Shown: positions 225-12,200 of the stretch, one piece after another
Layout of the letters: the number at the start of each line of letters is the position of its first letter
How positions within the stretch are numbered: the first letter of the stretch is position 1
Assembly (NCBI GenBank): GCA_018292915.2
Contig: JACVVK020000312.1
Coordinates: 31,001 to 95,000, forward strand
DNA from: Batillaria attramentaria
Lineage: Eukaryota > Mollusca > Gastropoda > Batillariidae
Reading direction: 5' to 3'
Length of the DNA stretch: 64,000 bases
Notes under the pieces: model-generated
The model's input: the letters and a program-made list of their open reading frames with translations, nothing else
The model's database searches: none
What the model was told of the DNA's origin: nothing
Made by a program: the position numbers and the translations under genes

Positions 225-3200
225 CTTTCGGGAGAAATATCGACAACAACTTGACACGTCGATTTGGAGTATGTTATAGTTAGCTCGAAATGCGTGATCG
301 TTTGGAGGCGCTGAGTGCATACAATTTCAAAAGCATCTTACATTAAAAACAACTAATCCGAGATGAGTGTATAATGACTGATGTACGGCATAAATGAAAA
401 AATGCGTGTTCTTTAATGCTTTTCTAACTTCTGCGTTGGGATTTCAAACCATGTAAGAAAGGATTCGCAGTTGCACATTCCGACCTAACTTCACTGAAAT
501 GAATTCTATATATTTATTTATTCATCGTCATCAACTGAATCAAACATATAATATGTGGTTTATAAATGGCGACTGCTGTTTTCTTGTAACTCACATTCCC
601 CATGAAGGATCCTCCTCTCTTGGTCTTTTCCAAGCCCACTACTGGTTTCACATCTGTAGACAGAGGCTTCTCCACATCGTGCTGTGAGTATGTAGCGCTG
701 GACAAAAACGCCTTGGTCGTAGGTGTCGGAGGAATCATGTTCATAAATCTCTTCGGTGTCTTCTCTAACCACGCGTACAGACGGCCTGGGAAATCCGCGT
801 ACCCGACAGGACAACGTCACAGAATGGTCACTGACCGCGAAGTTCATTTCGAGTGATAAGACTTCTGGAGCTGTGAGACAAACGACAAACTCTCATGAAA
901 CAAAAACCTGTGTTTACAGAACCTGCTTTTTGTCTCGTTATCCAGGTTTTGATGTTGTTGGTGTTGTTTTTTGTTTGTTTTTGTTTTGATGTTGTTGTTT
1001 GTTTGTTTGTTTGGGGGTCTTTTGTGAGGGGGGGGGGGAGGGGGCGATTTCACATCATTTGCATTACCTGAGAGTACAGACATTGGCTGAATGGGGCGAG
1101 AGCAGCGCGAGTGTGTTTTCCGCTTTCCTACAATATTCGTCTATTAGTATTGTGACAGGACTTAAAATAAACTACTCACCAGTAAGCGTGTAGGCAGTTT
1201 TCTGCTTTCCTACAATATTCGTCTATTTGTATTGTGACAGGACTCACCGGTAAGCGTGTAGGTAGCTGCACGACTTAGTCCACTGACAGTGTTGGATGTG
1301 GTGCAGGTGATGGTCTTCCCAACATCACTCGGTGCCAGAGCAAAACTGCACGTGCTGCTGTTGCCAGTGCCAGGTGACTGGTTACTGTGGTTGCATGTCA
1401 CGCCGCTCCAGGTGAAGGTCACAGCAGGTTGGAAGCGGCTGGCTACGCACATCAAAGTCAAAACACTCGGGAGCGTTTTGAAGTCATGTCGCAACTCTTC
1501 TACTGAAACCAGCAGCGGTCCGTCTGGAAGGGAGGAAACTGTTTTCAGTATAGGAACGACGACAAGAAATTCACCTCCGCCGAGAGTGAACTTCGCACTG
1601 TGCTGTATAGCAAACAGTACGAGCAGGTCCGGCCTGTATCCAAGACTGTTTTTGTCACACAGAGACAGAGAGAGAGAGAGAGAGAGAGAGAGAGAGAGTG
1701 TGTGTGTGTGTGTGTGTGTGTGTGTGTGTGTGTGTGTGTGTGTGTGTGTGTGTGTGTGTGTGTTGGGTGCTTTGGGGAGTTTAACGTCCTTTTTCCACCA
1801 CATACGAGTGATATCAAAGACGGGGCAACACAGCAACGCCAGCACAACTATTTGGCCCTAGCCGGGATACGAACTCACGACCCGAGCATTGGAAGTCCAA
1901 CGCTCTACCATTCAGCCACCCCGGCTCCCAGAGAGAGAGAGAGAGAGAGAGAGAGAGAGAGAGAGAGAGAGGGGTTCTTAGTTTTCCTAGTGACAATGTC
2001 TTCAGTCTTCAGTTATATCAATCCATTTTCAATCGAAATCTTTATGTTGTATTTTTTTTCTGTATAATCCAAGTGAATTTGCTCGATCATTTAGGACACT
2101 ACAGTAACTGAAAAAATCCACAGGTCTTACAATCCAGGTGATAAGTTTCCTCCACTCTATCAGCATAAAGTAGCGGCTCGGGCTCCCAGACGGCAGAACA
2201 CACGCACGGCGTGTCGGCCCCGGTGGCTCGGCTGGTGTCGATGGTCAGAGAGCTGGACACTGACGAGCCGTTTCTGTCGTCTGGTCCATCAGGATGATCG
2301 GGACTTGAACAGGAGAAGTGAACGCTGGATACCAGCGGCTCTCCTCCGGACACGATGCAGGTCAGTGTATCACCCGAGCTCAGGAACTGTGCTTTGTTGG
2401 AGCTATGTATCTTGGGTGGTGACGTTGGAGGATCTAGGTTAAGCAAAATGGTTAAAGCAAAACAATTGTACAAAGAAACAAACAATGTAGGCATTTAACA
2501 CAAAATGAATTTTATTAATCCGTTTTCGATACGCGAGAGCTACCAGGGGTTGACCAATAACAAACTTGTAAACCCCATAACCTTTCTGGTGCCACTTCAG
2601 ACATTGCTTTGTCTTTACAGCATTCGCATCTGTGTGAGGCTCTGCCAAGTTACTTTTAAATGCAAACGAATCTGTAACAGATTTGAATTTGTAGCACTTC
2701 TATTACAGAGTGAGTTTTTTTGTTTGTTTTTTTTTTAAGAATTGCTGTCTGTAGACACTGACCATACTAGAACATACTGTCTTGTCTCCTTTTCTTTTTT
2801 TTTTTTTTTCCCCCTTTGTCATGCTGGTGGTAAACGACAAAAACGACAATATTCACAAGTCATCCAGCCACATTAGTGCGCTATAAAATAGCCCGTGTTT
2901 TCTTCTTCAAGGATGAAAATGCTGCTACGGTGTGGCGCTGAATGCATGCAGTGGCTAGGCATTGTGTTTTTTCCAAATTGCTCTCCCCACAAGGAAAGCC
3001 TAAAATGTTGTCAAAATTATGAAGGTCTTACGTTCCAACTGATACGTGGTTCTTGCAGTCAAATTATACCGAAGCGGTTCAGGCCCCCAGACAGCAGAAC
3101 ACACACACAGCGTGTCGGCCCCGGTGGTGCGACTGGTGTCGATGGTCAGAGAACTGGACACTGACGAGCCGTTTCTGCCGTCTGGTCCATCAGGATGATA

Positions 3201-9200: not shown

Positions 9201-12200
9201 TCAGGATGATAGGGACTTGTACAGGAGAAGTGAACGCTGGATACCAGCGGCTTTCCTCCGTACACCATGCAGGTCAGTGTATTACCTGAACTCAGGAACT
9301 GTGCTTTGTTGGAGCTAAGTATCCTGGGTGGTGCAGCTGGAGGATCTGGGAAAAGGAAGCTGGTTAATATTTAAAACAAAACTTTTCTTAACAACGGACA
9401 ACGGTTGTATTGTGCTTATGGAATGATGTCAAACTACGTTTCTCACGAAATAATGACCTGTCGCATACGGGTTTCACTATCCTCAAAAAAAGGCTGAGCA
9501 AAAACTACCATTAAACCTTACATGAAATGTTGATGGTAAAATTTGCAGACGCAGACAGATACTTTGGGCTTGATGGATTGCGAGCTGTACACGTCACAGT
9601 CTTCCCGTCATGCAGTCCTGGCTGTGGTGTATAGCTGCACGTCTGATGATTGTTTCCTGTGTCACAGTTCACTCCAGTCCACTTATAACTCGGGGTCCGA
9701 TTGGCGTCATCAGCTTTGCAGGTCAAGGTCATTGTCTTTGATCCATCGGCTACAAATACTGAAGGACCAGAAATATCTACGTCGGATGGTCCATCTGTGT
9801 AAAGCAAAGCGTTCAACAGTAAAATGCCAGGGAATACTACTACTACTATACTACTGCTACTGCTACTACTACTACTACTACTACTACGACTACTACTATT
9901 ACTACTACGACTACTACTATTACTACTACTGCTGCTACTGCTACTTCTGCTACTACTTCTACTACTACATGTACTATTACTGCTGCTGCTACTTTTGCTA
10001 CTACTGCTACTGCTACTACCACCACCACTACTACTACTACTACTACTACTACTACTGCTGCTGCTGGTGCTACTACTACTACTACTACTACTGCTGCTGC
10101 TGCTGCTGCTGCTGCTACTACAACTAAAACTACTAAGTACTTACACAGTGCTTACCCTTAGACAAGATTTAAGCACCTTACTACCTAATGCTACACAAGC
10201 GACAAAGACAATCGCGGCTGGGTGACAGACGGGGGTATAGATAGATAAATCAGATAGAACAGATAAATCACAAAAATTAATACCAGTTTTGCATGTGACC
10301 ACTTCGTTCAGTTTCCCTAGCTTGAGATTTTTCGTGCAATACTTCGTTTACAATTATAGAGACATTACATTTCAAAACCAGTACTAACATGCAACACGTA
10401 GAGTATAGACCACCTCAGTTGTCTGACCATTAAGCACCATTTGACAGGTGAAGTTTTTGCCATTGTCTTTTCTCATTACATAGTCCTTCCTCAGCGATTC
10501 ATCTTCAGAGTATCCGGGCCAAGAAAATGCAGCAGAAATACCAGGCTTTGGGTGTTTGCAAGTACAGGCCAAAGTAAAACCTTCGTCTACATATCTAGGG
10601 CAGCCTGTGATAGGTGTTTCTCCATCTGTAACAGACAATAAATAAAATTCACCACCGGGAGTTAATCCGATAACAATTATGAGAAAGAACAACTAAGCAG
10701 TCAGAATCAACAAGGAAATGTTAAAGTTCACGAATACTTCCTTAATTATTTTGAGGGTAATTTGTGAATGCATTGTATATTTTAATGTTATAAAGTAATA
10801 ATAATAATAATAATGAATTGTACTTATATAGCGCAAAATTCTCACAGAGTGACTCAATGCGCGTACTCCCGCACTCATACCAACACACACACACACACAC
10901 ACACACACACACACACAGAGCAGCTGAATCAGGATGAGGTAAGTGGGCTTAGTCGAAAGCCAGCCGGAACAGATGCGTTTTCAAGTCAGACTTGAAACGA
11001 TCTATGTCCGACTGGTCTCTCGGGCCGGCAGGTAGTGCGTTCCAGAGCGACGGGGCAGCAAAGCTAAACGCGCGCTCGCCAACTGTTTTGAGGTTTCGAC
11101 GGGGAACGTTCAGTAGTTTTTCAGATGAAGAACGAAGAGTGCGTGCTGTTTGGTGGACTGTAAGGGAATTTGAGAGGTAGGCCGGAAGAGTTTCTTCAAA
11201 AAAGCGAAATACAAGTATTCAGATTTTGTAGTGAATGCGGAATTTCACTGGCAGCCAGTGAAGATGCCGCAGCAAGGGTGTGATATGGTCGGATTTTTTC
11301 TTTTTCAAAATCAGCCGTGCCGCGCTGTTTTGAACACGTTGGAGGCGGTTTATCTGTTCTGCCGGCAGATGCTGCCTATCTGATCCTGCATCGACAATGT
11401 TTGGTCGACCTTGACTCCGAGATATCTCACGGAACTCTGAAACTGAATAGTGCTCCCATCCATAACCAGAGAGTCACAGTCTACCTGCCTGAAGCGTGAC
11501 GAAGTACCTACAGCCATAACTTCTGTCTTTTCTGTGTTGAACATCAGCTTATTGCTGTTCATCCATGACAAAGTGTCATGAACACAAGACTGAATATGTG
11601 ACTGAACGGAATAAAAATCATCTGGCGGTGCACTTTTTGACAGCTCAGTGTCATCTGCATATTTGTGATAATCACATTCACGGGCGACAATGACATCAGA
11701 TAGTGGCTGGGAGTACAGAGTGAACAGCACAGGGCCAAGCACCGATCCCTGCGGGACACCAAAAACAAGAGGACTGGGCGCAGATGAAATTCCATCAACG
11801 ACAGACTGCAATCTACCACGGACATAGGATGAAAACCAGTTCAGAACGGTTCCCTTCAGACCGTAAGTATGCTCAAGTCTATTCAAAAGCACAGAGTGGT
11901 CCAGCGTGTCGAAAGCCGCGCTGAGGCCAAGGAGTGCCACGAGAGAAACCAGCCTCTCATCGGAATGAACTAACAGGCCATCCATGACACTCAGCACGGC
12001 TGTCTCCACGCTGTGATTTTTCCTGTAGGCTGACTGATTGGTTTCAAGCAAATCATTGGTAGACAAGTGCTCTTGAAGTTGTGCTAAGACAACTCTTTCA
12101 AGTAGTTTTGATATGAAAGACAAGTTTGACACAGGTGCTTTAACACATTTCTGTCGAGTCCAGGCTTTTTCAGTAAAGGAGTCACAACGGCCTCTTTGAA

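What the first reader, a model, noticed from the sequence alone, without database searches (positions are those of the whole stretch)
2131..9345. Eight intact, near-identical C-type Ig exons in tandem in one gene
Seen: eight 303-nt exons, same strand, same phase, all open and all with good splice sites; differences cluster in two short segments (about residues 44-53 after the second Cys, and 84-96 near the C-terminal end). Known: symmetric phase-1 exons can be included, skipped or chosen exclusively without breaking frame, as in Dscam-type arrays. Inference: either an eightfold domain concatemer or a set of alternative exons giving a diversified receptor. Both would be unusual in an otherwise three-domain receptor family.
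Basis: partly seen in the sequence, partly recalled or inferred. Interest (0 to 1): 0.88.

Follow-up and report, generated by a model that had tools for sequence, protein, structure and literature searches.

The report
Eight-fold immunoglobulin arm in snail receptor
A mud-snail gene carries eight highly similar copies of one immunoglobulin exon in a row, all intact; they are likely read together as a long repetitive outer arm of a predicted cell-surface receptor, as in a related apple-snail protein model with eleven such domains.

Summary
The genome is Batillaria attramentaria. They fit a 19-exon, all-phase-1 model of 1,853 aa: signal peptide, N-M-N-M, 8 C, three more Ig-like domains, transmembrane segment, and a tail with nine YxxP motifs, seven of them in 54-residue tandem repeats. 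A second locus (C694) holds five copies; four of the five have clear counterparts here, so four or five units predate the split. All 13 exons are open (7 of 2000 neutral simulations give that); pN/pS is 0.4-0.54. A Pomacea canaliculata protein model has the same plan with 11 C domains, so a concatemer read in full is the most likely product. No Dscam-type docking sequence was found by an exact-word test, so mutually exclusive use is less likely; skipping that gives arms of different length, as in sturgeon IgD, remains open. No transcript could be examined. 'Otherwise three-domain family' is half right: most scored Batillaria C matches stand alone, but the Pomacea relative has eleven.

The parts
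19114..19180 (-). Exon 1: signal peptide (MAMAKILFLLLMVYLNTWWCCL), predicted start of the gene
   Evidence: only convincing signal-peptide-like ATG with a phase-1 GTRAG donor in the two stretches scanned (10630-17870, 18780-26000, minus strand); the other high scorer is a microsatellite translation; phase 1
18551..18772 (-). N1 exon, N-type domain
   Evidence: open, AG/GT, phase 1; its place in this gene rather than in a remnant neighbour is inferred
17877..18137 (-). M1 exon, M-type Ig domain
   Evidence: open, AG/GT, phase 1; inclusion inferred; donor GTTAGA
10389..10625 (-). N2 exon, N-type domain
   Evidence: aligns with the first domain of Pomacea P0001; no Pfam match
9522..9794 (-). M2 exon, M-type Ig domain
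   Evidence: Pfam Ig_2 E 2.5e-7; 150 scored matches of 395 candidates in the genome
9043..9345 (-). C1 exon (first-type)
7495..7797 (-). C2 exon (internal type)
6601..6903 (-). C3 exon (first-type)
5510..5812 (-). C4 exon (own type, pairs with C694 copy 2)
4948..5250 (-). C5 exon (internal type)
4017..4319 (-). C6 exon (internal type)
3032..3334 (-). C7 exon (internal type); modelled as an Ig fold
   Evidence: AlphaFold mean pLDDT 79.7, best PDB match ICAM-1 D3-D5
2131..2433 (-). C8 exon (last-type, pairs with C694 copy 5)
1248..1523 (-). M3 exon, M-like domain after the array
   Evidence: 92% identical at C694; no Ig model above cut-off
595..870 (-). I1 exon, I-set-like Ig domain
   Evidence: Ig_3 E 4.5e-5, below Pfam's cut-off; aligned with the I-set domain of Pomacea P0001
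1..224 (-). I2 exon, membrane-proximal domain; it runs 136 bases beyond the window's left end (C312:30865-31224). The transmembrane exon (C312:30022-30126), tail exon T1 (C312:29272-29415) and the coding part of tail exon T2 with the YxxP repeats (C312:27988-28904) lie to the left of the window
   Evidence: C312 position = window coordinate + 31000; I2 has no Pfam match and is placed by alignment to P0001

Best explanation
This is a gene for a predicted single-pass cell-surface receptor of the snail Batillaria attramentaria whose eight highly similar C-type immunoglobulin exons are likely all spliced in series, giving a long repetitive outer arm (a concatemer). Shown: the exons are intact, of the same phase, with ordinary splice borders that allow C-to-C joining, and an open 1,853-aa reading can be drawn through 19 such exons with a signal peptide, up to 15 Ig-like domains, a transmembrane segment and a tail with nine YxxP motifs. 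Shown: a Pomacea canaliculata protein model has the same plan (without N1-M1 and M3) with 11 C domains. Inferred: the N and M domains at the tip would bind ligand; the C arm would set reach and valency; on clustering, Src- or Abl-type kinases would phosphorylate the YxxP tyrosines, which would recruit Crk-type SH2 adaptors, as DCBLD receptors do. Inferred: the array grew from about five units to eight by unequal crossing-over, and may still vary between individuals or be shortened by in-frame exon skipping.
For: Eight intact phase-1 exons. 0 of 13 copies with a stop against 7.4 expected. pN/pS 0.54 among the eight, 0.40 among the five at C694. No gap in any of 10 exon pairs compared between the loci (5 C, M2, M3, I1, I2, T1), against 5-8 gap events in each of 5 introns. 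Counterparts across loci: C8 with copy 5 (100/99), C4 with copy 2 (99/99), C1 and C3 with copy 1 (80/85), internal units with copy 3 (85/87). Pomacea P0001, N-M-C x11-I-I-TM, 38% identical over 62% of the query; P0002 with seven C and part of an eighth; Littorina P0005 with two C units 92% identical. Among 150 scored C matches the runs of eight and five are the longest. Nine YxxP in the tail, ten in the annotated C694 protein. Precedents: fish IgD with duplicated C exons, sturgeon transcripts with 3-19 CH domains (PMC5192425, passages); DCBLD YxxP tails bind CRKL-SH2 (PMC6029619, passages).
Against: No transcript was available. Pomacea P0001 is itself a database protein called 'isoform X2', probably a gene prediction; its C domains are not near-identical (mean 47%), and the 20 Batillaria C domains in my tree form their own clade (97/94), so the arrays arose or were homogenised separately. 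The annotated Batillaria protein from C694 (P0003) skips copies 2-4; I read this as an artefact because it starts in intron sequence and cuts copy 1 inside the exon, but it could be argued otherwise. Residues 44-53 show pN/pS 2.4, which a diversified set would also show, although the two segments together give 0.95 (bootstrap 0.56-1.59). C694 copy 4 has no positional counterpart: it groups with C4 and copy 2 (89/89). The tail exon T2, not among the 10 pairs, does differ in length between loci. N1-M1 may belong to a neighbouring remnant. The signalling step is weak: shuffled tails give 3.15 YxxP on average and up to 11 in 5000 shuffles, the tail also has two ITIM-pattern matches (VFYRRL, SDYMHL), and the Pomacea tail has no YxxP.
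Confidence: 0.72

Rival explanations
1. Length-variable receptor: the phase-1 C exons are skipped in varying numbers, so one gene makes arms of one to eight C domains, as sturgeon IgD does. (Compatible with the best explanation; the odds here are not meant to add up to one.)
For: All exons symmetric, so any skip keeps frame; sturgeon IgD transcripts encode 3-19 CH domains (PMC5192425, passages); the Pomacea protein is called isoform X2 and its cluster holds 6 member sequences, which I did not see.
Against: No transcripts seen; all eight C exons share GTAAG donors, which favours inclusion (inference).
Confidence: 0.35
2. Dscam-type array: one of the eight exons is chosen per transcript, giving a diversified single C domain.
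For: Symmetric tandem exons; differences concentrate in the loop after strand C and in the F-G loop to early G strand of the modelled fold; pN/pS 2.4 in residues 44-53.
Against: No flanking-intron word complementary to most inter-C introns beyond chance: the best exact 9-mers hit 3 of 7 and 4 of 7 introns, reached by 30 and 33 of 100 shuffles (exact words only, low-complexity words left out); shortest inter-C intron 259 nt and all GT-AG, so no evident steric or spliceosome block; internal copies C2, C5, C6, C7 have no amino-acid difference at 84-96, poor material for diversification; Pomacea is modelled as a concatemer.
Confidence: 0.12
3. Assembly artefact or wrongly expanded tandem repeat in a PacBio assembly.
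For: Heterozygous genome, assembled at 844 Mb and purged to 717 (715 final) Mb, with a k-mer estimate of 0.64 Gb (PMC10382545, passages).
Against: Copies differ from each other, inter-C introns fall into two families with distinct lengths and microsatellites, a second locus shows five copies, four of them with counterparts, and DNA was sheared to about 20 kb, longer than the 7.2-kb array (read lengths not seen).
Confidence: 0.06
4. The 5-copy C694 locus is the other allele (an unpurged haplotig), so the array is a copy-number polymorphism rather than two genes.
For: C694:102546-115782 is collinear, with inserts, with window 15601 to -3556, main pieces 86-96% identical; five introns 91-97% identical; residual haplotigs are plausible.
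Against: Beyond that block the stretches held (C694:85001-102545 and 115783-125000 against C312:1001-145000) share only repeats found at several places and two short single matches, at C694:87125 and 120070, 79-80% identical (pieces of 150 nt or more); the C694 N exon is truncated and no signal peptide, N1 or M1 was found at C694:85001-104000 (the 25-residue signal query is insensitive). The deciding flank search could not be run: the genome tools stayed busy.
Confidence: 0.35

Closest known systems
Pomacea canaliculata 'mucin-5AC-like isoform X2' (P0001, 1,885 aa) and P0002
   Same: Same plan N-M-C(n)-Ig-Ig-TM; C domains with the GG.PLVS.V...C and C.C.A.W signatures; shared CAP start of the last domain
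   Different: 11 C domains only 38-63% identical to each other; no N1-M1 and no M3; tail without YxxP, with one ITIM-pattern match SGYSTL. The database name is uninformative
Fish IgD heavy chain (catfish, zebrafish, sturgeon)
   Same: Tandem duplication of C-type Ig exons inside one gene, read in series; sturgeon transcripts of varying length (PMC5192425, passages)
   Different: Multi-exon units (C-delta 2-3-4 or 2-3), joined to a rearranged V region; compared as a way of working, not tested as a relative
Arthropod Dscam-hv exon arrays
   Same: Tandem arrays of exons for Ig sequence
   Different: Mutually exclusive choice; ten Ig plus six FNIII in Drosophila (PMC3364881, passages); no docking signal by the exact-word test and no FNIII in what was scanned
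DCBLD1/2 scaffold receptors
   Same: Transmembrane receptors whose tails carry eight (DCBLD1) and seven (DCBLD2) YxxP motifs, which bind CRKL-SH2 when phosphorylated (PMC6029619, passages)
   Different: CUB/LCCL/FV-FVIII ectodomain, no Ig array; comparison is functional only
Snail FREPs
   Same: Expanded Ig-bearing gene families of gastropods (recalled)
   Different: FREPs carry a fibrinogen domain (PMC7588048, abstract start in search listing); none was found in P0003, the annotated product of the C694 copy, and this gene model has a TM and tail

Membership tests
Immunoglobulin superfamily (C domain) | Ig beta-sandwich fold | tested here: met
   AlphaFold model pLDDT 79.7; Foldseek hits ICAM-1 D3-D5 (E 3.9e-4, TMq 0.64, the only match at E 0.001 or better), then RPTP-sigma/TrkC, IgY CH2, RAGE. 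Pfam Ig_3 only at E 0.037, below its cut-off; no significant PDB sequence match
Gastropod N-M-C receptor family (Pomacea P0001 class) | N-M-C(n)-I-I-TM order with sequence similarity | tested here: met
Gastropod N-M-C receptor family (Pomacea P0001 class) | Consecutive C domains present in one mature mRNA | not testable with these tools
   No Batillaria RNA held; the Pomacea evidence is a database protein model
Dscam-hv | Mutually exclusive splicing | not testable with these tools
   needs RNA
Dscam-hv | Docking/selector pairing in introns (recalled as a feature of Dscam exon 6) | tested here: inconclusive
   exact-word complement test no better than shuffles; imperfect pairing not tested
Dscam-hv | Ten Ig and six FNIII domains | tested here: not met
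   Six exon translations (C, M2, M3, N2, I1, I2) and C694 protein P0003 scanned against Pfam: no FNIII; N1 and M1 not scanned
FREP | Fibrinogen domain | tested here: not met
   P0003, which includes the TM and tail of the C694 copy, has no fibrinogen match
Fish IgD-like variable-length C arrays | Transcripts with different numbers of C exons | not testable with these tools
   works-like claim only
YxxP/CRK-type signalling receptor | Phosphotyrosine-dependent CRK/CRKL SH2 binding | not testable with these tools
   motif count only: 9 YxxP, beside 2 ITIM-pattern matches

The most novel reading that the evidence does not exclude
A receptor amplified on both sides of the membrane: near-identical Ig modules outside and near-identical YxxP docking modules inside were multiplied in the same gene, with array length differing between loci or alleles and tuned by exon skipping, so that reach, glycosylation and signalling valency are set by copy number rather than by sequence diversity.
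Probability: 0.25. Interest if true: 0.75.

Novelty: new variant of a known kind. Interest (0 to 1): 0.52.

Why it matters
Snail immunity is known mainly through FREPs and related Ig-lectin proteins (recalled). Here is a large, clustered Ig receptor family (150 scored M-type matches of 395 candidates and 150 scored C-type matches of 324 in one genome) for which my paper searches (listings only) showed no description, and in which one gene has stretched a single domain into eight highly similar units. If the arm is read in full, copy number becomes a simple evolvable dial for receptor length. The 8-copy and 5-copy versions in one assembly make this directly testable with long-read RNA and population resequencing.

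Tried and rejected
Single-exon protein search found nothing (2 candidates, none at E 0.001), most likely because only proteins of 0.55-1.75 times its length are candidates; the full-length model then found Pomacea. PDB sequence search gave nothing significant (best E 0.21). Dscam-type docking: no sign at the level of exact words. CA/TG microsatellites in the introns of the array are complementary over 75 nt, so they could pair in the pre-mRNA and loop out C exons; not pursued because such repeats are common throughout the window (76 tandem-repeat rows). Separate signal peptide close to N2: none convincing. The plan to locate I1, T1 and N2 elsewhere in the genome and to test the C694 flanks for a haplotig partner failed because the machine stayed busy.
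Full report
Where it is. The window is C312:31001-95000 of a 715-Mb, 863-contig genome. A published assembly of Batillaria attramentaria has 863 contigs and 715 Mb (PMC10382545, passages), and an annotated Batillaria protein, P0004, comes from a contig of 832,350 bases, the length of C312. I take the species as settled. (The annotated protein P0003, whose letters match C694, is listed on a contig of 231,950 bases, while C694 is given as 230,000; I did not resolve this.)

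The observation. Eight copies of one 300-nt unit lie at 2123-9334. On the minus strand each is an open 303-nt exon after AG and before GT, starting and ending in phase 1. Donors are GTAAGA in seven and GTAAGT in one. Mean protein identity among the eight is 85% (76-97%). In the AlphaFold model (pLDDT 79.7, 11 sequences) these fall in the loop after strand C (37-42) and in the F-G loop and start of strand G (93-100). The fold is immunoglobulin: best match ICAM-1 D3-D5, then RPTP-sigma/TrkC, IgY CH2 and RAGE. By sequence alone Pfam sees it only weakly (Ig_3, E 0.037).

The gene. Reading outward on the same strand gives 19 exons, the 18 junctions in phase 1 with AG/GT ends: signal peptide, N1, M1, N2, M2, C1-C8, M3, I1, I2, TM, T1, T2; 1,853 aa. 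N1-M1 are joined to the rest by inference; the 7.3-kb intron between M1 and N2 contains retroelement frames, and no other convincing signal peptide was found in the stretches scanned. The predicted TM is AAGAGVVVVVVVLIIVGVV (Kyte-Doolittle mean 3.11). The 359 residues from the end of the TM exon to the C terminus have nine YxxP motifs, two YLTP and seven YIHP; the seven YIHP lie in a block of three near-identical 54-residue repeats and the start of a fourth. 5000 shuffles of the tail give 3.15 YxxP on average and at most 11, and the same tail has two ITIM-pattern matches, so the repeat structure, not the count, is the striking part.

A second array. C694:102546-115782 is collinear, with inserts, with window 15601 to -3556; the main pieces are 86-96% identical. 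It carries five C exons, all open. Ten exon pairs compared across the loci have no gap; five intron pairs have 5-8 gap events each. The C7/copy 4 pair among them was chosen from flank similarity, not from the tree. TM and T2 were not among the ten; T2 differs in length in frame. The tree of the 13 C exons with four single-C relatives pairs C8 with copy 5 (100/99), C4 with copy 2 (99/99), C1 and C3 with copy 1 (80/85), and C2, C5, C6, C7 with copy 3 (85/87); copy 4 groups with C4 and copy 2 (89/89), not with an internal unit. So four, probably five, units predate the split, and this locus gained about three. The inter-C introns fall in two families, C1-C2 with C3-C4, and C2-C3, C5-C6, C6-C7, C7-C8 with a shortened C4-C5, as unequal crossing-over would leave them (inference). 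At C694 the N exon is truncated, and no signal peptide, N1 or M1 was found in 85001-104000, so that copy may be 5'-broken. Whether it is a paralogue or an allele is open: the flank search never ran, and the assembly may hold unpurged haplotigs.

Constraint. Pooled pN/pS is 0.54 among the eight, 0.40 among the five, and 0.58 across the loci for ten exon pairs. Within the eight it is 0.34 outside the two segments, 2.40 in residues 44-53, 0.88 in 84-96 and 0.95 for both together with a bootstrap range of 0.56-1.59, so diversification is not shown. Among the internal copies C2, C5, C6, C7 there is no amino-acid difference at 84-96. 0 of 13 exons has a stop; neutral simulation along their tree leaves 7.4 of 13 with one and gives none in 7 of 2000 runs. 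Between the loci the M2 exon has 13 nonsynonymous and 1 synonymous change, a hint, untested for significance, that the M domain rather than the C arm diversifies. The four internal copies carry an N-glycosylation motif at residue 91 that the other four lack.

Relatives. In this genome 150 of 324 C candidates were scored, so what follows is a lower bound. Grouped at up to 4 kb they form 119 runs: 101 single, 12 pairs, 4 triples, one five, one eight. Outside Batillaria, Pomacea canaliculata P0001 has SP-N-M-C x11-I-I-TM-tail, P0002 seven C and part of an eighth, and Littorina saxatilis P0005 two C units 92% identical. The 20 Batillaria C domains in the tree are one clade (97/94) apart from those of Pomacea (C domains of P0006-P0010 were not included), so the arrays were amplified, or homogenised, separately. 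The annotated C694 protein P0003 joins a piece of copy 1 to copy 5; because it starts in intron sequence and cuts copy 1 inside the exon I read it as an annotation error. P0004 fuses a TMEM145-like domain with parts of two N-M-C genes of this window.

How it most likely works. The relatives, the splice borders and the kept end-specific units fit a concatemer: N and M at the tip, a C arm, an M-like and two membrane-proximal domains, a TM, and a tail that offers many YxxP sites. End-specific units are also what unequal crossing-over leaves at the ends of any array, so this point is weak. DCBLD receptors with seven or eight YxxP bind CRKL-SH2 when phosphorylated by Src-family kinases or Abl (PMC6029619, passages). 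Ligand binding by N-M, the arm's mechanics and Crk recruitment are inferences. Fish IgD is the nearest precedent I found for reading tandem C exons in series, and in sturgeon their number varies between transcripts, 3-19 CH domains (PMC5192425, passages); in-frame skipping here is possible and untested.

Against Dscam-type use. Arthropod Dscam-hv chooses one exon per cluster (PMC3364881, passages). No 9-nt word in either flanking intron is complementary to more than 4 of 7 inter-C introns, no better than shuffles (exact words, low-complexity words left out). Inter-C introns are 259-1245 nt. This lowers but does not exclude exclusive choice.

Limits. No transcript was seen. My literature search on snail or mollusc Ig arrays and receptors was four full-text queries read as listings: 1 of 1 paper, 20 of 90, 10 of 747, largely off topic, 4 of 4; none shown described this family. 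Statements on function rest on analogy.

Noticed in passing
window 11350-14627 minus: Reverse-transcriptase- and endonuclease-like frames of a non-LTR retroelement (named from reading; no search run) inside the intron between M1 and N2 of the array gene.
   Followed up: no
L013:6990-7560 (C312:27990-28560): The cytoplasmic tail exon contains near-identical 54-residue tandem repeats (PPDYIHP, SDYVPW, SLPSDYIHP), also present at C694.
   Followed up: partly
L013:4990-6400 (C312:25990-27400): Long minisatellite of an about 20-nt unit (AGCAAGAGGTGTCTCCATAC), about 0.6 kb beyond the tail exon's stop.
   Followed up: no
window 31897-37303 and 47410-54050 plus; 62400-63999 minus: Further N-M-C receptor gene exons; public annotation P0004 fuses two of these genes with a TMEM145-like domain.
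   Followed up: partly
C58 and C328: Several C and M matches occur in pairs with equal scores on C58 and C328 in opposite orientation, suggesting unpurged haplotigs or a large inverted duplication of a receptor cluster.
   Followed up: no
window 9522-9794 against C694:104162-104434: M2 exon: 13 nonsynonymous and 1 synonymous differences between the loci, the highest pN/pS of the ten exons compared.
   Followed up: partly
C694 copy 4 (C694:107242-107544): Looks chimeric: its first half reads like C6 (DPPRSPPKIH, VSRVHF), its end like C4 and copy 2 (APFRYNMTART against APFRYKMTART).
   Followed up: no
L013:1-1480 (C312:21001-22480): Open frame resembling an LTR-retroelement integrase (from reading; no search run).
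   Followed up: no
window 60975-61046 plus: tRNA-like match, 35.6 bits.
   Followed up: no
P0006, P0007 (Batillaria, contig of 1,160,008 bases): Annotated partial proteins with a C domain (P0006 also M) and matches to the Pomacea membrane-proximal I1-I2 pair, so the rear half of the array gene may be a shared module.
   Followed up: partly
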